Below are positions 8,745 to 62,600 of a DNA stretch of 64,000 nucleotides, piece after piece. Origin of the DNA: Chondrosia reniformis. Its lineage: Eukaryota > Porifera > Demospongiae > Chondrillida > Chondrillidae. Numbering within the stretch: position 1 is the first letter of the stretch; every line of letters starts with the position of its first letter. The translations under genes were made by a program, and so were the position numbers. Under the pieces are notes generated by a model. It was given only the letters and a program-made list of their open reading frames with translations, made no database searches and was not told where the DNA came from. The stretch is from assembly GCA_947172415.1 (NCBI GenBank), contig OX359192.1, positions 3,784,501-3,848,500 on the forward strand, written 5' to 3'.

Positions 8745-9345
8745 TGTACTGTATATATTGCTTATATATGTAGAGTTAAAAGTGAGTGGTATATAAATAG
8801 GACTTCATTTACAACATATATTGGGTGACTGACGAGACCGATGCTGATACGGATGACATCGTCTGGATACAAGGTACGATGATTCCCTGGTTCAATACCA
8901 GGTTGGGTCCTGATAAAAGATAAAAAAGAAAAAAGCATATATCTTATATATGTATTATATATCATACATGTAATATATATTGTGTATATTTTATATGCAT
9001 ATTATATATCTTATATATTGCATATATACGGAGCCAAAAGTGAGTGGTATATAAATAGGACTTCATTTACAACATATATTGTGGAACCCACCTGACCGAT
9101 GGTGTTACAGATGACATCGTCTGGATACAAGGTACGAGGATGCCCTGGTTCAATACAAGGTTGGGTCCTGAAAAAACAAAAAAGCTTACATCTTATATAT
9201 GTATTATATTTCTTATATGTAATATATATTGTATATATTTTATATGCATATTATATATCTTATATATTGCATATATACGTTGTCAAAAGTAAGTGGTATA
9301 TAAATAGGACTTCATTTACAACACATATTGTGGAACCCACCTGAC
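8745..9345 (+). repeat. Satellite segment, about 2.4 monomers, plus orientation
   Basis: Same monomer and orientation as 456-6740. It ends at about 9345, where GTGGAACCCACCTGACC is followed directly by an inverted copy of the same block, marking a polarity reversal. Confidence 0.93.
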
Positions 9346-33310: not shown

Positions 33311-33402
33311 ATGTAGCGTTTCATTTTAGTTTGTTTAGATTGTTGAAATCTTTTGATATGTGGTGGCTTTGAAAAAAGCCGTTTGTTAGTTCTTCTTTTT
33401 AT

Positions 33403-33729
33403 TTATTTTTCTTCTTTTCTCTTTTTTGCAGCTGGTTCCTTTTCCTCCTCCAGATGTACAAACCTGCACTTCGGGTTTGTACAAGGCCTCCCCCAAAACA
33501 ACATGAATGGCCTCTTGCAGCCCTCAAGCAGGTGAGGTTCCACATGCCTGTATTCACACTCTCCAGGACCTTTTTTACATTTTTCTTGGAACCTACACAG
33601 CATTGGTAGGTTCCCTGGCTTCTTGGTCTTGGCTCTCTTTTCTCCTTTTCCTCCTTTTTCTCCGTTTTCTTTAGGGTTTATTATAGTTATCTGGCATTTG
33701 TCAAGATTTCTGAAGTTGAAGGTTGCCAT
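33403..33729 (-). CDS. Small CCCH zinc-finger protein (108 aa)
   Basis: The open frame starts at an ATG in good context (AAAAATGG) 40-48 bp below a TATA box. It encodes a basic 108-residue protein. Residues about 45-65 hold C-x5-C-x6-C-x3-H, and about 71-92 hold a second Cys/His cluster with wide spacing, C-x11-C-x4-C-x3-H. The ends are lysine/glutamate rich (GEKGGKGEKRAKTKK near residue 25, and a KKRKEEK tail). CCCH fingers usually bind RNA, so an RNA-binding role is plausible but inferred. The gene lies in the 7.3-kb transposon on the same strand as, and downstream of, the transposase-like gene. It has its own promoter, so it looks like an accessory gene. I do not recognise a specific family. 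The first finger is closer to canonical than the second. An AATAAAT polyadenylation-like signal lies near 33399 on the minus strand. Confidence 0.7.
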   Translation of the reverse strand: MATFNFRNLDKCQITIINPKENGEKGGKGEKRAKTKKPGNLPMLCRFQEKCKKGPGECEYRHVEPHLLEGCKRPFMLFWGRPCTNPKCRFVHLEEEKEPAAKKRKEEK

Positions 33730-33768
33730 TTTTGCTGTATCAGCTGTTGTAGCTATGCTGGGTAAAGT

Positions 33769-35175: not shown

Positions 35176-38100
35176 CTAATGAAGATTACATACCAATTTC
35201 AAGCAAAGCTTTATGTCCTTAGCATACTTACTGTACATGGTATTATTGGGAGATACTTGGGCTATTTGGAGATCTAAACTACGTTTCTTAGCTGAGATCT
35301 TTTTCCTAAAGTAACGGGCTAGTGAATGATACCTTTCCTTCTGAGAAGGCAACATATGCCTATCTCCTTGCTTATACATACACCGCAATTGATCAAATAC
35401 ATTCAAATCAGTGGAAGAGCCAAGCAATTTGGCAATAGCTTTACACACTGATGATTCAAGAGATACTTCAGGACAACTATTCAGTACCTCATCTACTTGT
35501 ACATCTACAGTACCTTCTGTGTTCAGGTTAGGATCTTGCTCATCATTTCCATTACTATTTTCCGTTTGGACAAAACCATCTTCACCATTTTCAGATGCTT
35601 CAGAACTTTCCTCACTCTGAATTGTTTTCCTACATGGAGTGGAAGACTTAGGAGAAGCCAAAGTAGGCTGGATAAATGTTGCTTCAAATGAAAACTCAGG
35701 TTCACTTGAAACATTCACACAGTTAGCAGAGGAAATATCAGATATGTTACCTTCCCTTTCATTTTCTCTTTCCATGATAATAGGAAGTGTTATTTTCTTT
35801 TCAATAACCTCCTTCCAACAGGATTCGGACCTTTCAGCAACATCTTCCATTGTAGCATTACGGAAATGTAACAATTCAGGCCCTTTAGATGAGATTTCTT
35901 CACCATCCTGCGGGTCATGGAAGCAAAAGCTGCCACATGAGTCTCTGTGCCACCAAACCCCTTCACCACACTTTAAATAAGGACTTATTCTTTTAAGGTG
36001 AGCCTTGTATGAATCTGTCCTTCTATTAATAAACTCTTCCTTGAAGATAGTGCCTGGGTAGGGAGGAAGTTTTGAAGCAGACTGACTAATTCTTGAGTTT
36101 TCCTTTCTGAATTTTAACAAAGGGTTGCTGGTTTTTTGATTCCTTTTGCATTGAAGTCTTTTCAGTATCCCTGGTAGCATGTTTTCTGGCTTGTGATCAG
36201 TACACTTTGCTGCTGATTCAGCACTCTTGAAGATTCTCTCCTCATTTTCAGTGTTGGTTGACCTGCAGCTAACAACTTCATGTTGCATAGGACCATGCAC
36301 AAGTAAAGCATGAAAATAATTTGAGATCATTGTGTCACCAAACAGCTCACAATGCAGCTCATGAACAATATATGCACAATTATAAAACTGTAGGCATTGT
36401 TTGGGACTTCTGTTAGAATCTTTTGAATACAGAATATTGGACAGTTGAACAAGACAGCAAATAAAAGTAGCCACAGTACTTGGAGTATCATATAAGTGGA
36501 ATATGTGAGCTACATCTACTAGTGCTTTACGAAGGTCAGAACCATACAAATTTGCCTTCTTCCACAAGGTACTAAAATAATCACACAATGAAGTTTTTAG
36601 CCTTGAAGGCCCCAAAACCAAGGGCAATTGTCTAAAGACAGCACCTAGATAGCCCTTTAAATCATGGAGAGGCTCACAAGGAAGGACACTGTAGCTATCT
36701 AGATGAAACTCATCTAATGAACTTTCAGGTGCCATCATCAGTAAAGAGGGAACTCTTTGCACTCCCCGGAGCATTTCCTTTAGGACATTTAATCTACCCT
36801 TTTTATCAGACGGATAGTCCTTAACACCCCTTTTCTCGAACTCAATTCTTAACTGATTTGTGTTTAATTCTTCGTAGTACTTTATCTTACCAGGAACTTT
36901 ACCAAAGTGTCCTCCTGTAGCCACTTTAAGATTTTTCTGCAGCGTCCTTTGTTCACACTTAACTGCATGTGGAAAATCTGCAAAACTATTACGGTGACAA
37001 ACACAAGCAACACAAGGATAATTTCCACCACATGTGATCCCAGCTTCAAATTGTGCTGCAGGTTTATCACCCTTGAAGAAACGCAGCCTATCAGTAATTC
37101 TGATTCCAGTTGAACTTAGAACCTCATCACTTAGACCATCCAATTCTGAGAGTCGCTCAGGAATTAAAGTAGCCTGATCTTGTAATGATGAGGACCCATG
37201 AGCAACTACATGAATTTCTCCTTCTTGGAGAAACTCTTCTACATTTTTACCTATTTCATTTTCAGTCATGAACACAATAGGGTCATACATAACCCCAACC
37301 ATTATGGCTAAAATACCATGTGATGCTAGACTTGAGTGGTCATGCCATATCCAGATAGTCCTTGTCCTCTCATATTTGGAAAGGAGGTGTTTCAATTCCT
37401 CCAAACTCAAATTTTCAAATTGATTCATAGAATATCCTGCCCCTTCCCTAAGTACACCTAGAATATATTCCTTACTCATTGCTTCAATCTCAACATCAGT
37501 ATGAAGCCTCATAAATTTTTCATGGGCCTTCAGTAAACCATTTCGAATGTCAAACAAAGGAAATTTACGACTTTGGGCAACAGTTTCAACCCTTTCTCCT
37601 TTGTGATATCGTACTAAAGTAATGGGAATACATGGTATGCCTTCATTTAATACACCATTTTGGACAAGGGAACGGTCAATGTCTACTAATCGCCTTTTGT
37701 TAGGAGGTACGGGTACTGCCATAGATGTGCTTTGGAATCTTTTTTTTGTAGACTTTGGCTTTGGAACTATTTCAAGCCCTGGAATTGAAGGATTAATTTC
37801 TTGAGCAAGTAACCTAATTTTATTACTGCCATCAGTAGCACTGACATCAAACAATTTAGCTATATCATTAGCTATAAACTTTGTATTAGGGTCCCATGTT
37901 TTTAAGCATTCACAAAGTTCTGGAAATTTGCTGCATTCATGTGGTCTCAGTGGATACCGTTTCTTTTTCGGGGCTTTGTCATCACAGGGTGGCTCAAAGT
38001 ATTGTTCTTTACGAAAGCTATCAGCCTTGCTTAAACTAATATTATTTGAATAAATAGCTGGAAGGGTACTAGAATCAAGTATGTCCTTAAACTCTGAGAT

Positions 38101-38373
38101 TAGCTTCTTTTGGGCTTCTGTAACTAATTTATTAACATCACCCTCACTATAACACTTATTTCTAGATTCATTCAGGGGTTTATTACAAGTCTGCTTCTTC
38201 CCATTAAATGTTTTCAATGTTGAACTTCTCTTTGAAGCATTTTCTTTCTCATATTCAGGCACTGAGATATTAAAAAAAGGCTTCAGTGGGAAAGTTTTTT
38301 GAATTTCTGCAAACTGTGTAGCACAAGCTACACAGTTTGACAAAGAATGTTTTTCTTTTTCAGGTGAGGACAA
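35176..38373 (-). CDS. Transposase-like protein with SAP-like segment (main open frame, 1065 aa)
   Basis: Long uninterrupted frame; its nominal first codon is TTG, and the true start is probably the upstream piece at 38726. Residues are numbered from 38373. Visible motifs are WHDHSS (343-348), GDKPAAQFE (435-443), a Cys/His cluster with C448, C454, C457, C459 and H460, a SAP-like helix-turn (about 500-536, LNTNQLRIEFEKRG then KKGRLNVLKEML), RGVQRVPSLL (536-545) and CEPLHDLKG (566-574). An acidic serine-rich region and a basic tail end the protein. The order D345, D436 with a Cys cluster, then E567 in E-P-x-H-D-L-x-x-G parallels D26, D116 and D242 of the TNP2 transposase at 60925-61950 with nearly the same spacing. 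I recall closely similar uncharacterised proteins from corals and anemones. With the flanking inverted repeats, a transposase role is a well-supported inference. DNA binding through SAP and zinc segments is likely. Confidence 0.8.
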   Translation of the reverse strand: MSSPEKEKHSLSNCVACATQFAEIQKTFPLKPFFNISVPEYEKENASKRSSTLKTFNGKKQTCNKPLNESRNKCYSEGDVNKLVTEAQKKLISEFKDILDSSTLPAIYSNNISLSKADSFRKEQYFEPPCDDKAPKKKRYPLRPHECSKFPELCECLKTWDPNTKFIANDIAKLFDVSATDGSNKIRLLAQEINPSIPGLEIVPKPKSTKKRFQSTSMAVPVPPNKRRLVDIDRSLVQNGVLNEGIPCIPITLVRYHKGERVETVAQSRKFPLFDIRNGLLKAHEKFMRLHTDVEIEAMSKEYILGVLREGAGYSMNQFENLSLEELKHLLSKYERTRTIWIWHDHSSLASHGILAIMVGVMYDPIVFMTENEIGKNVEEFLQEGEIHVVAHGSSSLQDQATLIPERLSELDGLSDEVLSSTGIRITDRLRFFKGDKPAAQFEAGITCGGNYPCVACVCHRNSFADFPHAVKCEQRTLQKNLKVATGGHFGKVPGKIKYYEELNTNQLRIEFEKRGVKDYPSDKKGRLNVLKEMLRGVQRVPSLLMMAPESSLDEFHLDSYSVLPCEPLHDLKGYLGAVFRQLPLVLGPSRLKTSLCDYFSTLWKKANLYGSDLRKALVDVAHIFHLYDTPSTVATFICCLVQLSNILYSKDSNRSPKQCLQFYNCAYIVHELHCELFGDTMISNYFHALLVHGPMQHEVVSCRSTNTENEERIFKSAESAAKCTDHKPENMLPGILKRLQCKRNQKTSNPLLKFRKENSRISQSASKLPPYPGTIFKEEFINRRTDSYKAHLKRISPYLKCGEGVWWHRDSCGSFCFHDPQDGEEISSKGPELLHFRNATMEDVAERSESCWKEVIEKKITLPIIMERENEREGNISDISSANCVNVSSEPEFSFEATFIQPTLASPKSSTPCRKTIQSEESSEASENGEDGFVQTENSNGNDEQDPNLNTEGTVDVQVDEVLNSCPEVSLESSVCKAIAKLLGSSTDLNVFDQLRCMYKQGDRHMLPSQKERYHSLARYFRKKISAKKRSLDLQIAQVSPNNTMYSKYAKDIKLCLKLVCNLH

Positions 38374-38417
38374 AGCAGCCCAATTTAAAGAAGAAAAGGC
38401 TTTTACATAGGCTACCT

Positions 38418-38726
38418 TTAAAGATGTAAAGGAAAACCTTTGGCAAAAGCTTTTTCTATCATTTTACAATGAGATTCAAATAAGCTAATGGATTTAAGAC
38501 TTTTTTTCTCAAAATAATTAGGGCCAATCACAAATTGTGGTCCCACAAATAAGCTTTGGAAACATTCTCTAGTGTTATACTCAACCTTCTTAGTCTTCTT
38601 TTTACTCTTCTCCTCAGAAATAGTTTCCTCGGATGTCTCGGCACGCCTTTTAGGCATACATTCATACACCAAAGTGCGGCAAAAGCCACAGTTGAAAGAT
38701 CTTCCCGAATTGTTGACAAATGGCAT
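38418..38726 (-). CDS. N-terminal part of the transposase-like gene (102 aa, out of frame with main part)
   Basis: The ATG frame encodes a Cys-containing start (NCGFCRTLVYEC, near residues 12-23), a lysine-rich stretch, and GPQFVIGPNYFEKKSLKSIS followed by FESHCKMIEKAFAKGFPL. It then meets TAA at 38418. The main frame is open just past this point (SLKVAYVKAFSSLNWAAL) and runs into the 1065-aa part. A one-base frame break near 38420-38440 therefore probably separates two parts of one protein. A short intron is less likely: the only good donor-like AAAGGTAGCC lies after the stop. The break could be a real mutation inactivating this copy or a sequencing error. A cysteine-rich N-terminus of this type is what I recall at the start of the coral homologues. 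Confidence 0.65.
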   Translation of the reverse strand: MPFVNNSGRSFNCGFCRTLVYECMPKRRAETSEETISEEKSKKKTKKVEYNTRECFQSLFVGPQFVIGPNYFEKKSLKSISLFESHCKMIEKAFAKGFPLHL

Positions 38727-49628: not shown

Positions 49629-51984
49629 ATATAAGATATATAATACATATATAAGATGTATGCTCTTTTTTCTTTTTCAGGACCCAAACTGGTATAGAAC
49701 CAGGGCATCCTCGTACCTTTTTTCCAGACGATGTCATCCGTAACACTATCGGTCAAGTGGGTCACTCAATATATGTTGTAAATGAAGTCCTATTTATATA
49801 CCACTGACTTTTGACTCTACATATATATGCAATATACAAGATATATAATATGCATATAAGATATATACAATATATATTATATATAGGATATATTAGACAT
49901 ATATAAGATGTATGCTTTTTTCTTTTTTCAGGATCCAACCTGGTATTGAACCAGGGCATCCTCATACCTTGTATCCAGATGATGTCATACGTACCACCAT
50001 CGGTCACGTGGGTCACCAATATATGTTGTAAATGAAGTCCTATTTATATACCACTCACTTTTGACTCTACATATATATGCAATATATAAGATATATAATA
50101 TGCATATAAGATATATACAATATATATTACATATAAGATATATAATACATATATATGTTGTATGCATTTTTTTCTTTTTTCAGAACCCAACCTGGTATTG
50201 AACCAGGGCATCCTCGTACCTTGTATCCTGTCGATGTCATCCGTAACACCATCGGTCAGGTGGGTTCCACAATATATGTTGTAAATGAAGTCCTATTTAT
50301 ATACCACTCACTTTTGACTACCTCTAAATGCATTATATAAGATATATAATATGCATATAATATAAACAATATATATTTCATATAAGATATATAATACATA
50401 TATAAGATATATGCTTTTTTCTTTTTTATCTTTTATCAGGACCCAACCTGGTATTGAATCAGGGAATCATTGTACCTTGTATCCAGACGATGTCATCCGT
50501 ATTACCATTGGTCACGTCAGTCACCCATTATATGTTGTAAATGAAGTCCTATTTATATACCACTCACTTTTGACTCGACATATATATGTAATATATATAT
50601 ATATATATAATATGCATATAAGATATAAACAATATACATTACATATAAGATATATAATACATATATAAGATGTATGCTTTTTACTTTTTCAGGACCCAAC
50701 CTGGTATTGAACCGGGGCATCCTCATACCTTGTATCCAGACGATGTCATCCGTAACACCATCGATAACGTCGGTCACCCAATATATGTTGTAAATGAAGT
50801 CCTATTTATATACCACTCACTTTTGACTCTACATTTATATGCTACATATAAGAATTATAATAGGCATATAATATATATACATTATATATTACAAATAAAA
50901 TATATTATGCATATATAAGATGTATACTTTTTTCTATTTTTAGGAACCCAACCTGATATTTAACCAGGACATCCTCATACCTTGTATCCTGTCGATGTCA
51001 TCCGTGACACCATCGGTCACACAGGTTCCACAATAAATGTTGTAAATGAAATCCTATTTATATACCAATCACTTTAGACTCTAGATTTATATGCAATATA
51101 TAAGATATATAATAGGCATATAAAATATATACAATATATATTACATATAAAATATATAATTCATATATAAGATGTATTCTTTTTCTTCTTTCGGGACCCA
51201 ACCTGGTATTGAACCAGGGCACCCTCGTACCTTTTATCCAGACGATGTCATCCGTAACACCATCGGTCATGTCTGTCACCCAATATATGTAGTAAATGAA
51301 GTCCTATTTATATACCACTCACTTTTGACTGTACATATATATGCATTATATAAGATATATAAATATGCATATAAGATATATTCAATATATATTACATATA
51401 AGATTTAAATACATATATAAGATGTGTGCTTTTTTTCTATTTTCAGGACCCACATTGGTATTGAACAAGGGCATCCTAATACCTTGTATTCAGACGATGT
51501 CATCCGTAACACCATCGATAACGTCGGTCACCAAATATATGTTGTAAATGAAGTCCTATTTATATACCACTCACTTTTGACTCTACATATATAAGCAATA
51601 TATAAGATATATAATATGCATATAATATCTAAACAATATATATTACACAAAAGATATATTATACATATATAAGATTAATGCTTTTTTCTTTTTCAGGACA
51701 AAACCTGGTATTGAACCAGGGCATCCTCGTACCTTGTATCCAGACGATGTCATCCGTAACACCATCGGTCACGTCTATCACCCAATATATTGTGTAAATG
51801 AAGTCCTATTTATATACCACTCACTTTTGACTCTACATATATATGCAATATATAAGATATATAATACATATAATATGCATATAAGATATATACAATATAT
51901 ATTACATATAAGATATGTAATACATTTACAAGATGTAAGATGATTTTCTTTTTTCAGGACCCAACCTGGTATTGAACCAGGGCA
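49629..51984 (-). repeat. Satellite array, about 9 monomers, minus orientation
   Basis: Resumes the satellite after the inverted-arm element with ATATAAGATATATAATAC. It ends at about 51984, where GAACCAGGGCATT runs directly into the AT-rich part of an oppositely oriented monomer. Confidence 0.93.
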
Positions 51985-52800
51985 TTATATATCTTATATA
52001 TTGCTTATATATGTAGAGTCAAAAGTGAGTGGTATATAAATAGGACTTCATTTACAACATCTATTGGGTGACCCACCGACCGATGGCGTTACGGATGACA
52101 TCGTCTTGATACAAGGTACGAGGATGCCCTGCTTCAATACCAGGTAGTTTCATGAAAAAAGAAAAAAAGCATATATCTTATATATGTATTTTATATCTTA
52201 TGTGTAATATATATTGCATATATTTTATATGCATATTATATATCTTATATATGGCATATATATGTAGAGTCAAAAGAGAGTGGTATATAAATAGGACTTC
52301 GTTTATAACATATTTTGGGTGACCCATGTGACCGATAGTGTTACGGATCACATCGTCTGGTTACAAGGTACGAGGATGCCCTGGTTCAATACCAGGTTGG
52401 GTCCTTAAAAAAGAAAAAGATACATACATCTTATATGTATTATATATCTTATATGTAATATATATGGTAAATATCTTAAATGCATATTATATATCTTAAA
52501 TATTGCATATATATGTAGAGTCAAAAGTGAGTGGTATATAAATAGTGCTTCATTTACAACATCTATTGGGTGACCCACCGACCGATGTTATTACGGATGA
52601 CATCGTCTGGATACAAGGTACGAGGATGCCCTGCTTCAATACCCGGTAGTTTCCTGTAAAACGAAAAAAAAAGCATACATCTTATATATGTATTATATAT
52701 CTTATATGTAATGTATTTTGAATATATCTTATATGCATATTTTTTATCTTTTATATTGCATATAAATATAGAATTAAAGTGAGTGGTATATAAATAGGAT
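51985..52800 (+). repeat. Satellite array, about 3 monomers, plus orientation
   Basis: The motif order GAGTCAAAAGTGAGTGG, TATATAAATAGGACTTC, CATCGTCTGGATACAAGG now reads on plus. Monomers here are more diverged than elsewhere (for example GGTAGTTTCCTG in place of GGTTGGGTCCTG), as expected near an array edge. It ends at about 52800 after TATATAAATAGGA. Confidence 0.92.
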
Positions 52801-52947
52801 TTTGATCAGAAATAATCACTGGAACGTATTACGCCATACCAGCCAAGTGACCGAAGTCTGATCTTGGCTGGGGGACCGAAGTCCTATTAAGTTGGCAACC
52901 AGTGATCGCCTCCCAGTCATTCAAAGATGGAAAAAATTCATCAAAGA

Positions 52948-52992
52948 ACCACAGACAGCTGTTTCGCCCTCATTTGGGCTCATCAGTGTGGT
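52948..52992 (-). ncRNA. Type I hammerhead ribozyme, unit 1
   Basis: Minus strand: stem I ACCACA, core CTGATGA, stem II GCCC-AAATGA-GGGC, GAA, stem III ACAG/CTGT with no loop nucleotides, cleavage triplet GTC, then stem I TGTGGT. Every conserved core position matches the hammerhead consensus, and all three stems are fully paired. Cleavage would fall after the C at 52954, counted on the minus strand. Confidence 0.88.
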
Positions 52993-53306
52993 ACACTTCA
53001 ATGATGGTAAATTGGATGACTGCCCTCACTTATAAATCCACCACAAGTGAAACCCTTGTGGTTTCATTTTAAGTGAGGATGGAGGCTACAGTCTAAGTGA
53101 GACTGAACACTCAAAATGATAAAGGGAGTTAATTGCACTAAGCCTGTGCAAAGGCTAAAATGATCAGAAATAATGAATGGAACGTATTACGCCATACCAG
53201 CCAAGTGACCGAAGTCTGATCTTGGCTGGGGGACCGAAGTCCTATTAAGTTGGCAACCAGTGATGGCCTCCCAGTCATCCAAAGATGGAAAAAAATTCAT
53301 CAAAAA

Positions 53307-53351
53307 ACCACAGACAGCTGTTTCGCCCTCATTTGGGCTCATCAGTGTGGT
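53307..53351 (-). ncRNA. Type I hammerhead ribozyme, unit 2
   Basis: Identical in core and stems to the unit 1 ribozyme, 359 bp downstream. Confidence 0.88.
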
Positions 53352-53665
53352 ACACTTCAATGATGGTAAATTGGATGACTGCCCTCACTTATAAATCCAC
53401 CACAAGTGAAACACTTGTGGTTTCATTTTAAGTGAGGATGGAGGCTACAGTCTAAGTGAGACTGAGCACTCAAAATGATAAAGGGAGTTAATTGCACTAA
53501 GCCTGTGCAAAGGCTAAAATGATCAGAAATAATGAATGGAACGTATTACGCCATACCAGCCAAGTGACCGAAGTCTGATCTTGGCTGGGGGACCGAAGTC
53601 CTATTAAGTTGGCAACCAGTGATGGCCTCCCAGTTATCCAAAGATGGAAAAAAATTCATCAAAAA

Positions 53666-53710
53666 ACCACAGACAGCTGTTTCGCCCTCATTTGGGCTCA
53701 TCAGTGTGGT
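53666..53710 (-). ncRNA. Type I hammerhead ribozyme, unit 3
   Basis: Identical in core and stems to unit 1, again at 359-bp spacing. Confidence 0.88.
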
Positions 53711-54024
53711 ACACTTCAATGATGGTAAATTGGATGACTGCCCTCACTTATAAATCCACCACAAGTGAAACACTTGTGGTTTCATTTTAAGTGAGGATGG
53801 AGGCTACAGTCTAAGTGAGACTGAGCACTCAAAATGATAAAGGGAGTTAATTGTACTAAGCCTGTGCAAAGGCTAAAATGATCAGAAATAAAAACTGGAA
53901 CGTATTACGCCATACCAGCCAAGTGACCGAAGTCTGATCTTGGCTGGGGGACCGAAGTCCTATTAAGTTGGCAACCAGTGATGGCCTCCCAGTCATCCAA
54001 AGATGGAAAAAAATTCATCAAAAA

Positions 54025-54069
54025 ACCACAGACAGCTGTTTCGCCCTCATTTGGGCTCATCAGTGTGGT
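54025..54069 (-). ncRNA. Type I hammerhead ribozyme, unit 4
   Basis: Identical in core and stems to unit 1, again at 359-bp spacing. Confidence 0.88.
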
Positions 54070-54383
54070 ACACTTCAATGATGGTAAATTGGATGACTGC
54101 CCTCACTTATAAATCCACCACAAGTGAAACACTTGTGGTTTCATTTTAAGTGAGGATGGAGGCTACAGTCTAAGTGAGACTGAGCACTCACAATGACAAA
54201 GGGAGTTAATTGCACTAAGCCTGTGCAAAGGCTAAAATGATCAGAAATAATCACTGGAAAGTATTATGCCATACCAGCCAAGTGACCGAAGTCTGATCTT
54301 GGCTGGGGGACCGAAGTTCTATTAAGTTGGCAACCAGTGATCGCCTCCCAGTCATCCAAAGATGGAAAAAAAATCATCAAAGA

Positions 54384-54420
54384 ACCACAGACAGCTGTTT
54401 CGCCCTCATTTGAGCTCATC
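54384..54420 (-). ncRNA. Broken hammerhead, unit 5
   Basis: The stem III, GAA and one side of stem II remain. Stem II carries a mismatch (GCTC against GGGC), and the stem I/CTGATGA side is cut by the junction to satellite (TCATC then ATGTGGG). It should be inactive. Confidence 0.75.
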
Positions 54421-57314
54421 ATGTGGGTTCCACAATATATGTTGTAAATGAAGTCCTATTTATTTACCACTCAGTTTTGACTCTACATATATATGAAATA
54501 TATAAGATATGTAATATGCATATAAGATATATACAATATATATTATATATAGGATATATTAGACATATATAAGATGTAAGCTTTTTTTCTTTATTCAGGA
54601 TCCCACCTGGTATTGAACCAGGGCATCCTCATAACTTGTATCCAGATGATGTCATACGCACCACCATCGGTCACATGGGTCACCCAATATATGTTGTAAA
54701 TGAAGTCCTATTTATATACCACTCACTTTTGACTACGTATATATGCAATATATAAGATATATAATATATAATATGCATATAAGATATAAACATTATATAT
54801 TACGTATAAGATGTATAATACATATATAAGATGTATGCTTTTTTCTTTTTCAGGACCCAAACTTGTATTGAACCAGGGCATCCTCGTACCTTGTATCCAG
54901 ACGATGTCATCCATAACACCATTGGTCACGTGGGTCACCCAATATATGTTGTAAATGAAATCCTATTTATACACCACTCACTTTTGACTACGTATATATG
55001 CAATATATAAGATATATAATATAAAATATGCATATAAGATATATTCAATATATATTACATAAAGATATATAATACATATATAAGATGTATGCTTTTTTTT
55101 CTTTTTTCAGGAAACCACCTGGTATTGAAGCAGGGCATCCTCGTACCTTGTATCCAGACGATGTCATCCGTAACACCAAAGGTTACGTGGGTCACCCAAT
55201 ATATGTTGTAAATGCAGTTTTATTTACATACCACTCACTTTTGACTCTATATATATATGCAATATATAAGATATATAATATGCATATAAGATATATACAA
55301 TATATATTACGTATGAAATATATAATACATATATAAGATATATGCTCTTTTTTTAAGGACCCAACCTGGTGTTGAACCAGGGAATCCTTCTACCTTGTAT
55401 CCAGACGATGTCATCCGTAACACCATCGCTCACGTGGGTCACCCAATATATGTTATAAATGAAGTCCTATTTATATGCTAATCACTTTTGACTCTACATA
55501 TTTATGCCATATATAACATGTATTATAAACATATAAGATATTTACAATATATATTACATATAAGATATATAATACATATATAAGATGTATGCTTTTTTTC
55601 TTTTTCAGGACCCAACCTGGTATTGAACGAGGGCATCCTCGTACCTTGTATCCAGACGATGTCATCCGTAACACCAACGGTTACGTGGGTCACCCAATAT
55701 ATGTTGTAAATGAAGTTTTATTTACATACCACTCAGTTTTGACTCTACATATATATGCAATATATAAGATATATAATATGCATATAAGATATATACAATA
55801 TATATTACATATAAGACATATAATACATATATAAGATGTGTTTTTTCCTTTTTCAGGACCCAACCTGGTATTGAACCAGGGCATCCTCGTACCTTGTATC
55901 CAGACGATGTCATCCGTAACACCATCGGTAACGTTGGTTACCCAATATACTTTGTAAATGTAGTACTTTTATATACCACTCACTTTTGACTCTACATATA
56001 TATGCAATATATAAGATATATAATATGCATATAAGATATATACAATATATATTACATATAAGATATAAAATACATATATAAGATGTGTTTTTTCCTTTTT
56101 CAGGACCCAACCTGGTATTGAAACAGGGCATCCTCGTACCTTGTATCCAGACGATGTCATCCGTAACACCATCGGTCACGTGGGTCACCCAATATATGTT
56201 GTAAATGAATTCCTATTCATATACCACTCACTTTTGATTCTACATATATATGCAATATATAAGATATATAATATGCATATAGATATATACAATATATATT
56301 TTATACAATATATATAATACATATATAAGATGTATGCTCGTTTTTCTTTTTTCAGGTGACCCAACCTGGTATTGAACCAGGGCATCCTCGTACCTTGTAT
56401 CCAGACCATGTCATCCGTAACACCATCGGTCATGTGGGTCACCCATTATATGTTGTAAATGAAGTCCTATTTATAAACCACTCACTTTTGACTCTACCTA
56501 TATATGCAATATATAAGATATATAATATGCATATAAGATCTCTACAATATATATTACATATAAGATATATAATACATAAATAAGATGTATCCTTTTTTTT
56601 TTCAGGACCCAACCTGGTATTGAACCAGGGCATCCTCAAACTTTTATCCAGACGATGTCATCCGTAACAATATCGGTCATGTGAGTTCCACAATATATGT
56701 TGTAAATGAAGTCCCATTTATATACCACTCACTTTTGACTCTACATATATATGCAATATATAAGTTATATAACATGCATTTAAGATATATAAAATATATA
56801 TTACATATAAGATATATAATATGCATTTAAGATATATACAATATATATTACATATAAGATATATAATACATATATAAGATGTATGCTTTTTTCTTTTTTC
56901 AGGACCCAACCTGGTATTGAACCAGGGCATCCTCCTACCCCATATCCAGACGATTTCATCCGTAACACCATCGGTCACGTCAGTTCCACAATATATGTTG
57001 TAAATGATGTCCTATTTAGATATCACTCACTTTTGACTCTACATATATATGCAATATATAAGATATATAATATGGATATTAGATATATACAATATATATT
57101 ACATATAAGTTATATAATACATATATAAGATGTATGCTTTTTTCTTTTTTAGGACCCAACCTGGTAGTGAACCAGGGCATCCTCGTACCTTGTATCCAGA
57201 CGATGTCATCCATAACACCATCGGTCACGTGTGTCACCCAATATACTTTTTAAATGAAGTCCTTTTATATACCACTCACCTTTGACTCTACATATATATG
57301 CAATATATAAGATA
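54421..57314 (-). repeat. Satellite array, about 11 monomers, minus orientation
   Basis: Resumes within the CACATGGGTTCCACAATAT block. Several monomers carry GGGTCACCCAATATATG, which gives the best acceptor-stem pairing of the tRNA-like block. It ends at ATATATAAGATA, where CACTGCAAAAG of the EnSpm element begins. Confidence 0.93.
56358..56440 (-). other. Representative tRNA-like block of the satellite monomer
   Basis: On the minus strand the block of about 83 nt starts GACCCAC and ends TTGGGTC, giving 6 of 7 acceptor pairs. A D-arm follows: CCG, loop ATGGTGTTA with the GG pair and flanking A residues, CGG. The T-arm is CCTGG, 7-nt loop TTCAATA, CCAGG, matching the tRNA T-loop and the B-box pattern GWTCRANNC. 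The A-box region (TGACCGATGG in other copies) is close to the class II tRNA form TGGCCGAGTGG. No convincing anticodon stem is present, so this is not a working tRNA. A tRNA-derived, SINE-like origin is inferred. Confidence 0.55.
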
Positions 57315-59609: not shown

Positions 59610-62600
59610 ATGAGCTGCATAGCTGATCATGACTTACCCAAGAGTAAGAGGCCAAAGCCTAGCCTCTGTCCCTGCTGCAATCGACTGGTATCTAAAAGTA
59701 CCATCAAGAGACACAAAAACCTATCTAAACTAAAGAATAGAGGACAAAACCAAGCGGAACCACATGCAAGTTCCTCTCAAGTTGTGCATAGGATCCAGGA
59801 AGACAGTTGTAATAGTGCAGAAGAATCAGATATAGATATGCCGTTTGATTGTGTTTCCTTGGAATATTCAACTGAAGGTGAACTGAATACTGTTTTTAGT
59901 GAAGAGGAGGAGGATGTATGTTATTACTAGTAACACAATCATTTCTATCAATTTTGATATATCAACTGATTCTACATAATTATATAGGAAATAAATGAAG
60001 AAGTTACAGTGGCAGATTGTATATCAGAGAGGACACTTAATGAGCAGATGGAATCACTGGCAGAAATACTTCCACCAATTGAGAGTAATATTGATGATTA
60101 TGGCGAAAGTGATAGAGACAAGGTAGAGAACTTCTCACTATCATCCCCTGAGATGTAATATATATATATATACAATCAATGACCAACCAACCTTTTACGC
60201 AGAGAGACAAAAATATCTATGTACATTTGCTCACTAGGTTAAAAGACTATTGAAAGAATGGTCTTGATAGAGTAATATATACACAGCCCAATTGCAAGTT
60301 GTATTGAAACTACAAAATCTACTCTCTTGTAGGAAACCCATTCCCAGTCTACCACACCAACAGAAAACGTTCAGGAAAAGGCAACCAATATTTTTCAAGA
60401 AATAGCTATCTTCATTTTGATGTTTCATGTACACCACAACATTTCCGAAAATGCCACCAATGCACTTGTCAACTTTCTAAAGGGTCTCATGGAATCGATA
60501 GCATCCTCAAAAATGATGCATGAAGAGATAAAAATATTATCACAACTTATTCCTAGAAATTCTTCAACCTTAATAAAAAATCTGGACTTAAATACTGAGA
60601 TCAAGAGAAAAATCTCATGCCCATAATGTCACCAACTATATGACTATAGTGGTACAAGGCCAATTAGAGGATTGAATTGTACTTTTGTTAAATATCCAAA
60701 CCACCGGCAGCAAAACTTAGAAAAACCTGTGATCAACCCCTGTTGAATGAAGTACAAAAAGGTGAAAAGCTGTTCTATCAACCGAAGTGCTTTTACATAT
60801 ATCAGCTACTTGCAGATACTCTTGAAAACGTGATTAAGAGACCAGGGTTTTTGAAATTACGTAATTCGTGGAAAAACAGAAACAAACATCCTAGACTTCT
60901 TGGTGATATATATGATGGTACAATATGGAAAAATTTAATACAGTGGATGGAAGGTCTTTTCTCAAAGATCCAAATAATTTAGCCCTTATGATGAATGTTG
61001 ATTGGTTTCAACCTTACAAACGAAGTCCATACAGTATTGGAGTAATCTACTTTGCAATCCTCAATTTGCCTAGACATCTCCGCTTCAAACCGAAAAATGT
61101 TATTACATATTCTGTTATACCTGGACCAAATGAGCCTAAAGGAGTAATGAATAGCTACTTAAAAATACTTGTAGAAGAGCTTAAGCAACTATGGCAAGCA
61201 GTATATCTATCTGGCACTGGTGTTTTCACACAAGTAAGAATTCGTGCAGCAGTTGTTTTGGTCGCTTGTGATACACCAGCAACAAGAAAAGTTTTAGGAT
61301 TCACCTCTCACAATTCCATCAAGGGTTGTTCTAAGTGCCTTATTTCAATGAGAAATGCTCGTAGCCAGGAACATATGACTAAAGGAAATGACTTCGAAAA
61401 TGAAGGCAGTTCTGATGAATCAAATGAAGATGAAAGTGATGCCATGTTCTCTAATGAATATTGTCAAAAATATATTGATTCTAGCACCTGGCCGGTCAGA
61501 GATTCTAGTCAACATAAAGAGATTGTGTATTTACACCAACAATGCAAAACAAAACAGGAGGAAAAGGAAATAGAGAAGAAGTACGGCATTAAGTATTCTG
61601 TTATGAACGAACTACCTTACTTTGACTGTGTTGGACTTCATACAATTGATCCTATGCACAATCTGCTGCTTGGTATTTCAAAGCTTATGATGAAGACATG
61701 GAAAGAAATTGGTTACTTGAAGGACACTACCTTTAAGGAAATCCAGGAGGAAGTAAATGCCTTCACATTACCTCAGTTTGAGGGAAGAATTCCTAGAAAA
61801 ATAGGATCACAATTTATGGGGTTTACAGCAGATCAATGGAGAAGTTGGACTACCATTTTTTCTTTACCAGTTATGAAATTAGAACTTCCCGAAAACGATT
61901 ATAACTGCTGGGCATATTTTGTATTTGGCTTGCTGCATGTTATGTACTAAAACCATCTCAGAAGAAGAAGTAGCACAAGCTCATGTTTTACTTCTTAGGT
62001 TTCTTGAATGCTATTTGAAGCTTTATAAAGAGGAAAGGCTCGTTCCTAATCTACACCTAATGCTTCATCTTAAGGAGTGCATGTTAACGTTTGGCCCTAC
62101 ATACTCAATATGGCTATTTAGCTTTGAAAGAATGAATGGACTATTAGGATCAATTCCAACAAACAACAAGTACATTGAGGAACAGTTTTTCCATAGGTTT
62201 CTTTTAACTCAACGCATAACCTGGAAAAAAGAAACATTTGAGACAAAGACAATAGCTAAAGATGACAAAGAAAGCACACTTCTTGACACAAATCAACCTG
62301 AAAATAGCAGGAGTGTATTAATAATGACGGCTTGGGAGGAGCATGGTATACAATCACTAGTTAACCAGGAAAACCTAGCAAAACATCTGAAACTCTGCTT
62401 GCAAATACCAATAGTGGTTGATCATCAAGAAAAGCATTTGCAGTTCTATACCCTTGAGGAAAAAGAAAGACAAGACATTATCAAAACAATGGGAGAAGGT
62501 TATAGCAGGATTATAGTTGCCCAGGAGATTAGAGAAATAACCATTGGAAATAACTCATTTTCTCCATTAAGTGACAGGAAGTCTTGGGTTTTGGCATTCA

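What the first reader, a model, noticed from the sequence alone, without database searches (positions are those of the whole stretch)
52803..54420. Tandem array of 359-bp units, each with a perfect type I hammerhead ribozyme
Four complete copies carry CTGATGA, a paired stem II, GAA, a loopless stem III ACAG/CTGT, the GTC cleavage triplet and stem I ACCACA/TGTGGT, at constant 359-bp spacing. Two other strong hairpins occupy each unit. This is the layout of a self-cleaving, possibly circular, non-coding RNA (retrozyme- or satellite-like), and the core shows no decay in units 1-4.
Basis: partly seen in the sequence, partly recalled or inferred. Interest (0 to 1): 0.88.

Follow-up and report, generated by a model that had tools for sequence, protein, structure and literature searches.

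The report
Sponge self-cutting jumping RNA repeat
A kidney sponge chromosome carries tandem copies of a 359-base repeat whose RNA should cut itself with a hammerhead ribozyme, and the ends of its genomic copies suggest that the machinery of Penelope-like jumping genes spreads it, which would answer an open question about how such repeats move in animals.

Summary
In detail: window 52803-54426 carries four head-to-tail ~359-bp units plus a truncated fifth, and each of the four has a type I hammerhead on the minus strand (Rfam 34.6 bits, cut-off 34). The genome matches Chondrosia reniformis (kidney sponge), chromosome 4. The new part is how it inserts. Sampled insertions are often two arms joined head to head, with outer 3' ends at two fixed sites, A and B, 40 nt apart (about 57 in the sister family). 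Where both outer ends are such sites, one is A and the other B in 22 of 23 (family 1) and 17 of 19 (family 2). 28 of 40 loci share 7-15 bp of flank. Seven of seven sampled paired solo insertions of a Penelope-like element in this genome show the same signature. This is genomic evidence that a PLE-type enzyme mobilises animal retrozymes, a link proposed before. The window copy itself has only an A end, no partner arm and no target duplication. A tail pseudoknot is not supported by covariation. Cleavage and circular RNA are untested.

The parts
52803..54426 (-). retrozyme array: four full ~359-bp units and a truncated fifth; RNA strand is minus
   Evidence: strand from the hammerhead hits
52948..52992 (-). 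type I hammerhead, unit 1; predicted cut between 52954 and 52953
   Evidence: Rfam RF00163 34.6 bits; cut site after GUC from the sequence
53307..53351 (-). type I hammerhead, unit 2; predicted cut between 53313 and 53312
   Evidence: Rfam RF00163 34.6 bits
53666..53710 (-). type I hammerhead, unit 3; predicted cut between 53672 and 53671
   Evidence: Rfam RF00163 34.6 bits
54025..54069 (-). type I hammerhead, unit 4; predicted cut between 54031 and 54030
   Evidence: Rfam RF00163 34.6 bits
53121..53160 (-). A-to-B tail of unit 1 (40 nt between the two insertion-end sites) with complementary words UUGCAC/GUGCAA and AGCC/GGCU
   Evidence: end map; pairing not backed by covariation
53480..53519 (-). 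A-to-B tail, unit 2
53839..53878 (-). A-to-B tail, unit 3 (GTACAA variant)
54198..54237 (-). A-to-B tail, unit 4
52803..52803 (-). outer 3' end of the array, at site A (e152)
54238..54426 (-). truncated fifth unit; array 5' end at e322, inside hammerhead stem I/core, joined to satellite (CCAC-like microhomology by eye); no target duplication found
52025..52802 (+). flanking ~250-bp AT-rich satellite, plus orientation
54433..57314 (-). flanking ~250-bp satellite, opposite orientation
   Evidence: aligned at both ends of the stretch, signature positions between

Best explanation
This is a non-autonomous animal retrozyme. The minus strand is transcribed as a head-to-tail RNA, the hammerheads cut it to 359-nt monomers, and a host ligase closes these to circles (inferred from published retrozymes). 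A Penelope-like element (PLE) reverse transcriptase with a GIY-YIG nuclease then takes this RNA, cuts AT-rich DNA with a stagger, and primes from both DNA strands: one cDNA starts at site A and the other at site B, 40 nt apart on the RNA. Each cDNA runs 5'-ward, sometimes for several units, and the two are joined in the middle. The result is head-to-head arms of tandem units bounded by A on one side and B on the other, inside a short target duplication. Shown: units, ribozyme motif, dispersal, A/B ends, shared flanks, and the same signature in PLE solo insertions. Inferred: cleavage, circles, the enzyme acting in trans, the order of steps. The window's own array has the A end only, so it is a one-ended or rearranged case.
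For: Hammerheads in the four full units. The best-scored family 1 hits group into 40 insertions. Of 23 family 1 insertions with A/B sites at both ends, 22 are A/B, 1 A/A, 0 B/B; family 2, 17 of 19 A/B, 1 A/A, 1 B/B. With duplicated loci collapsed by hand: 19 of 20 and 13 of 15. A shared flank word of 7 bp or more in 28 of 40 loci against 119 of 1560 cross-paired flanks. Units within a locus differ by 1.25%, between loci by 5.0% (39 units, 24 loci; 0 of 2000 shuffles as low); family 2 1.1% against 5.8% (13 units, 10 loci). A PLE with RVT_1 and GIY-YIG over cut-off: 7 of 7 paired solo insertions have one A and one B end, head to head, with 8-15-bp shared flank words. The published PLE 'tail' lies between two reverse-transcription start sites, and that enzyme cuts and extends both DNA strands (PMC11167929, main text read); inverted pLTRs with an optional 31-bp tail on one of them and 8-10-bp duplications in Adineta PLEs (PMC3846280, passages).
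Against: The window copy has no B end and no target duplication. 17 of 40 family 1 and 21 of 40 family 2 sampled insertions do not show two A/B-type ends: 10 and 16 have one such end plus a 5' end, 7 and 5 an unclassified end. 12 of 40 loci share less than 7 bp of flank. The retrozyme tails share no sequence with the tail of the Penelope-type PLE (one BLAST hit beside a PLE proved to be a neighbouring retrozyme-like tail); only the layout is shared. No covariation supports the family 1 tail pairing, and the PLE tail folds no better than shuffles (z -0.14). Long arrays hold units nearer to other loci than to their own (L014: 1 of 5 nearest in own locus; window: 2 of 4). The PLE sample was drawn from B-ended best hits, so A/A pairs could have been missed. 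No RNA data.
Confidence: 0.78

Rival explanations
1. A tandem satellite that carries a relic ribozyme and spreads by unequal crossing-over, not by retrotransposition.
For: Tandem layout inside another satellite; the window array has no target duplication and its units 1 and 5 share variants against units 2-4, as local rearrangement could give.
Against: Dispersed insertions with fixed outer ends and shared flanks at most sampled loci; hammerheads over cut-off in the four full units and in a sister family.
Confidence: 0.07
2. Another retrotransposon (a LINE) mobilises it, with ordinary twin priming making the inverted arms.
For: LINE twin priming also gives inverted arms (recalled); target duplications of this size are compatible.
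Against: In twin priming as I recall it one start is internal and variable; here both starts are fixed and the pair is nearly always one A plus one B, as in the PLE solo insertions. I did not search for LINEs.
Confidence: 0.08
3. The helper is the Naiad-type PLE (GIY-YIG upstream of the RT) and not the Penelope-type one.
For: Naiad pLTRs carry a hammerhead with CTGATGA and GAAACRGCTGTC as in the retrozymes (by eye), and a hairpin followed by GTTCCCCTAT as in family 2.
Against: The 17 Naiad 3' pLTR copies in the best 40 of 2244 candidates end at one site (query 408-412) and no A/B pair was seen; shorter, A-ended copies would rank lower and may have been missed.
Confidence: 0.2
4. A DNA transposon or MITE with long terminal inverted repeats.
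For: Inverted arms and target duplications.
Against: The two ends differ by 40 or about 57 nt, arm lengths vary from tens of bases to several units, and inner ends are scattered.
Confidence: 0.02
5. An endogenised viroid-like or delta-like infectious RNA.
For: Small, structured, ribozyme-bearing unit.
Against: Hammerhead on one strand only; no exact match of a core pattern in viral contigs; several divergent genomic subfamilies.
Confidence: 0.02

Closest known systems
Metazoan non-LTR retrozymes with type I hammerheads (Cervera and de la Pena 2020, PMC7229834: abstract, passages, one results section and discussion read)
   Same: Type I hammerhead, 170-400-nt unit, tandem copies, duplications larger than 4 bp when present, PLE helper proposed.
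   Different: What I read of it does not describe two fixed end sites or head-to-head arms; 'sponge' and 'Porifera' do not occur in its main text.
Penelope-like elements (Poseidon of Anolis, PMC11167929; Adineta Penelope, PMC3846280)
   Same: Two start sites with a 30-40-bp tail between them, tail on one of two inverted repeats, cutting and extension of both strands, hammerhead motif nearby.
   Different: PLEs code for RT + GIY-YIG and carry minimal hammerheads (PMC7761336, passages); the retrozyme has no long ORF and carries a fuller one.
Plant LTR retrozymes (PMC4918200, search listing only)
   Same: Hammerhead-bearing non-autonomous element, circular RNA.
   Different: Type III hammerheads in LTRs with 4-bp duplications (as summarised in PMC7761336 and PMC7229834).
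Newt satellite 2 and other hammerhead satellites
   Same: Tandem repeat with a type I hammerhead (unit size recalled; newt satellite named in PMC7229834).
   Different: Here the family is dispersed with defined ends.

Membership tests
Metazoan retrozyme | type I hammerhead | tested here: met
   RF00163 34.6 bits in the four full units, gathering 34; family 2 loci up to 43.1 bits
Metazoan retrozyme | unit of ~150-450 bp in tandem or monomeric copies | tested here: met
   359 bp, four full units and a partial one; family 2 354 bp
Metazoan retrozyme | no protein-coding capacity | tested here: met
   no closed frame of 120 aa or more overlaps the array
Metazoan retrozyme | no LTR, primer binding site or polypurine tract | not tested
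   not searched for
Metazoan retrozyme | dispersed insertions with target duplications over 4 bp | tested here: met
   28 of 40 loci share 7 bp or more, cross-paired controls 119 of 1560; not met by the window copy itself
Metazoan retrozyme | self-cleavage and circular RNA in tissue | not testable with these tools
   no RNA data
Penelope-like element (autonomous) | RT and GIY-YIG ORF | tested here: not met
   no long ORF in the array; so not a PLE itself
Penelope-like element (insertion signature) | two fixed 3' ends with a tail on one of two inverted arms | tested here: met
   22 of 23 and 17 of 19 insertions with two such ends, out of 40 and 40; PLE yardstick 7 of 7; the window copy shows one end only
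Plant LTR retrozyme | type III hammerhead in LTRs | tested here: not met
   hammerheads match the type I model

The most novel reading that the evidence does not exclude
One PLE reverse transcriptase complex reads a single retrozyme RNA (circle or multimer) from two obligatory start sites at once, one per DNA strand, with A used on one strand and B on the other; the short stretch between them is the cis-signal by which a non-coding RNA hijacks PLE enzymes, and this explains both the inverted arms and the tandem arrays of animal retrozymes.
Probability: 0.55. Interest if true: 0.78.

Novelty: new member of a known kind. Interest (0 to 1): 0.6.

Why it matters
Animal retrozymes occur in several phyla, but the enzyme that spreads them has only been proposed (PLEs are called a strong candidate in PMC7229834). 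Fixed paired ends that match PLE biochemistry turn that proposal into a specific, testable statement, point to the stretch of RNA that is used, and add a sponge to the hosts.

Tried and rejected
Second ribozyme on the plus strand and other RNA families in the array: none above threshold (Hammerhead_HH9 27.5 bits at the truncated end, cut-off 52, and weak viral-pseudoknot hits far below theirs). Tail pseudoknot: a first count on 20 of 32 distinct family 1 tails, which I had picked, plus one misfitting family 2 row, looked supportive (90.2% of 204 cells paired, 5 pairs changed on both sides); with all 32 tails the support is gone (89.0% of 310 cells, 1 pair changed on both sides, 122-313 of 500 shuffles as high). 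I dropped it, and lowered best confidence 0.80 to 0.78 and novel-case probability 0.60 to 0.55. The E1 tail match beside a PLE in L051: on reading the sequence it is a neighbouring family-1-like tail with the PLE inserted beside it. Naiad PLE as partner: single 3' end in the best 40 hits. Twelve tail-motif places, chosen from the 100 listed, were looked at for a PLE frame: none recognised by eye, no family search run; a thirteenth, L064, has the tail 3.7 kb from Naiad remains and no shared frame recognised. Viral contigs with the core pattern: 0. One-turn family 2 monomers (L044, L067-L069, L071, L072; L070 has a short inverted piece) and family 1 inner ends in e105-152 (11 of 26 arms, zone chosen after looking) hint at a stop after one turn, but linear multimers could give the same. 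Literature: searches listed at most 20 papers each (of 41, 15, 7, 3 and 3,052); no title or abstract start shown there reports retrozyme end sites. Two PLE-hammerhead papers cited in PMC7761336 are not held: I tried two PMC ids from its reference list.

Full report
Where it is. The genome holding the window has 117,379,552 bases in 15 contigs. Contig 15 is 17,451 bases; its first 10,000 bases hold mitochondrial genes in code 4 (recognised by eye). Total, chromosome and mitochondrial lengths agree with the kidney sponge Chondrosia reniformis, assembly GCA_947172415.1 (PMC12181767: search listing, and passages). The window is then chromosome 4, 3,784,501-3,848,500. The species is inferred from sizes.

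Observation. Four units and a truncated fifth lie at 52803-54426. Each of the four carries a minus-strand Hammerhead_1 match of 34.6 bits against a gathering score of 34, at 359-bp steps. Unit 5 breaks off inside stem I/core. The array sits in a ~250-bp AT-rich satellite that fills much of the window. One unit folds better than 100 of 100 shuffles (z -5.4). In a predicted circular fold stems I and II form, and CUG/CAG pair in place of stem III.

Family. The unit has 125 matches with 40 of 1046 first-look candidates scored, a lower bound. The Rfam model finds 51 places over its cut-off (73 of 11,921 candidates scored; the window copies are not among the rows, so the list is incomplete). Many belong to a second family of 354-bp units; one such unit aligns with the window unit along its length, with CTGATGAG and CGAAACAGCTGTC identical. 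The tail word GTGCAATTAACTCCC with at most one mismatch occurs 743 times, its reversed control 3 times. Twelve sampled places were divergent family 1 subfamilies and short solo tails.

Ends. Counted from the cleavage site on the ribozyme strand, classified outer ends of family 1 fall at e145-157 (A) or e192-201 (B), of family 2 at e137-149 (A) or e193-205 (B). The retyped tables give 40 insertions each. Family 1: 22 A/B, 1 A/A, 0 B/B, 10 with one A or B end and a 5' end, 7 with an unclassified end. Family 2: 17 A/B, 1 A/A, 1 B/B, 16 with one A or B end and a 5' end, 5 with an unclassified end. The zones were set after seeing the data, and the places are best matches, not a random sample. With loci of identical architecture collapsed by hand the counts are 19 of 20 and 13 of 15. 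Both outer ends are 3' ends of the ribozyme strand, so the arms meet head to head.

Target duplications. The two flanks (22 bp each plus 5 bp of element) share a word of 7 bp or more in 28 of 40 loci (window, L010-L048); flanks of different loci do so in 119 of 1560 pairings. Some flanks are themselves AT-rich repeats. The window copy shares 5 bp.

Template. Full units of one locus differ by 1.25% on average and units of different loci by 5.0% (26 against 715 pairs); in L010 the two inverted units are identical. This fits both arms being copied from one RNA. In long arrays (L014, window) some units are nearer to other loci, so multimeric templates, template switching or later change are also possible.

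The PLE yardstick. L050 and L051 hold open frames of 772 and 750 aa with RVT_1 and GIY-YIG over cut-off and a minimal hammerhead-like motif CTGAGGAAGACCCCCAGGGTCGAAACGTT (by eye; Rfam lists no hammerhead there at E <= 5). A genome search with the PLE end plus tail gave 47 matches with 40 of 1283 candidates scored. Fourteen of these form seven pairs, and each pair is a solo insertion with one arm ending at A, the other 31-36 nt further at B, head to head, sharing 8-15 bp of flank. The remaining 33 matches end at or near B without a close partner; whether they are insertion ends was not examined, and A/A pairs would not rank here. The layout equals that of the retrozymes. In the purified Anolis PLE, reverse transcription starts at two adjacent internal sites that bound the genomic tail, and both target strands are cut and extended (PMC11167929, main text). 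Adineta Penelope elements have inverted pLTRs with an optional 31-bp tail on one of them and 8-10-bp duplications (PMC3846280, passages). Cervera and de la Pena proposed PLEs as helpers of animal retrozymes (PMC7229834, discussion and one results section).

Signal. Between A and B, family 1 has complementary words (AGCC/GGCU and UUGCAC/GUGCAA) and family 2 a hairpin of a different sequence (CTTTAAGATC/GATCTTAAAG) at the aligned place. This is suggestive, no more: on all 32 distinct family 1 tails 89.0% of 310 cells pair, no better than shuffled controls, with one pair changed on both sides. The PLE tail can form a 6-bp hairpin but folds no better than shuffles. No primary sequence is shared with the PLE tail.

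What remains open. Which PLE supplies the enzyme; whether the template is a circle; what in the tail is recognised; and why the window copy lacks a second end: it adjoins a change of satellite orientation, so it may be a one-ended insertion joined by microhomology, or later rearranged. Cleavage is untested.

Noticed in passing
window 454-57314: A ~250-bp AT-rich satellite fills much of the window and switches orientation near 9330/9347 (at a near-palindrome with GTGGAACCCAC), near 51984-51988 and at the retrozyme; the right retrozyme junction falls at about the same satellite position as the 9330 switch.
   Followed up: partly
window 33346-33385 and 33403-33768, minus: A histone 3'-UTR stem-loop match (34.2 bits, cut-off 34) lies just downstream of a short ORF with a lysine-rich end and weak, sub-cut-off CCCH zinc-finger matches: perhaps a non-histone gene with a histone-type 3' end.
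   Followed up: no
window 60916-61947: ORF with Transposase_21 (tnp2) match, E 5e-15.
   Followed up: no
window 35176-38463, minus: 1095-aa open frame with no Pfam match at E 0.1.
   Followed up: no
L049, L065, L066, L064: Naiad-like PLE (name recalled): GIY-YIG upstream of RT-like motifs (YRYIDD by eye; Pfam RVT_1 not matched in the L049 frame), ~400-bp direct pLTRs, hammerhead-like motif of the retrozyme type; one copy sits inside the same satellite as the window.
   Followed up: partly
L073-L079: Several arms of the PLE solo insertions end (5') at pLTR position 323-327, the 5' edge of its hammerhead-like motif; cause unknown.
   Followed up: no
L051:3698-3786 and 1250-1268: A PLE copy sits at the B site of a family-1-like tail, with an apparent TAACTCCCTTTTA duplication (read by eye).
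   Followed up: partly
L044, L067-L069, L071, L072: Family 2 monomers of about one unit (350-360 bp matched) that start and stop near site A; L068 and L071 share flanks and look like one event.
   Followed up: partly
genome-wide: 743 tail-word matches; among 12 sampled places several are solo ~35-50-bp tails without a retrozyme body.
   Followed up: partly
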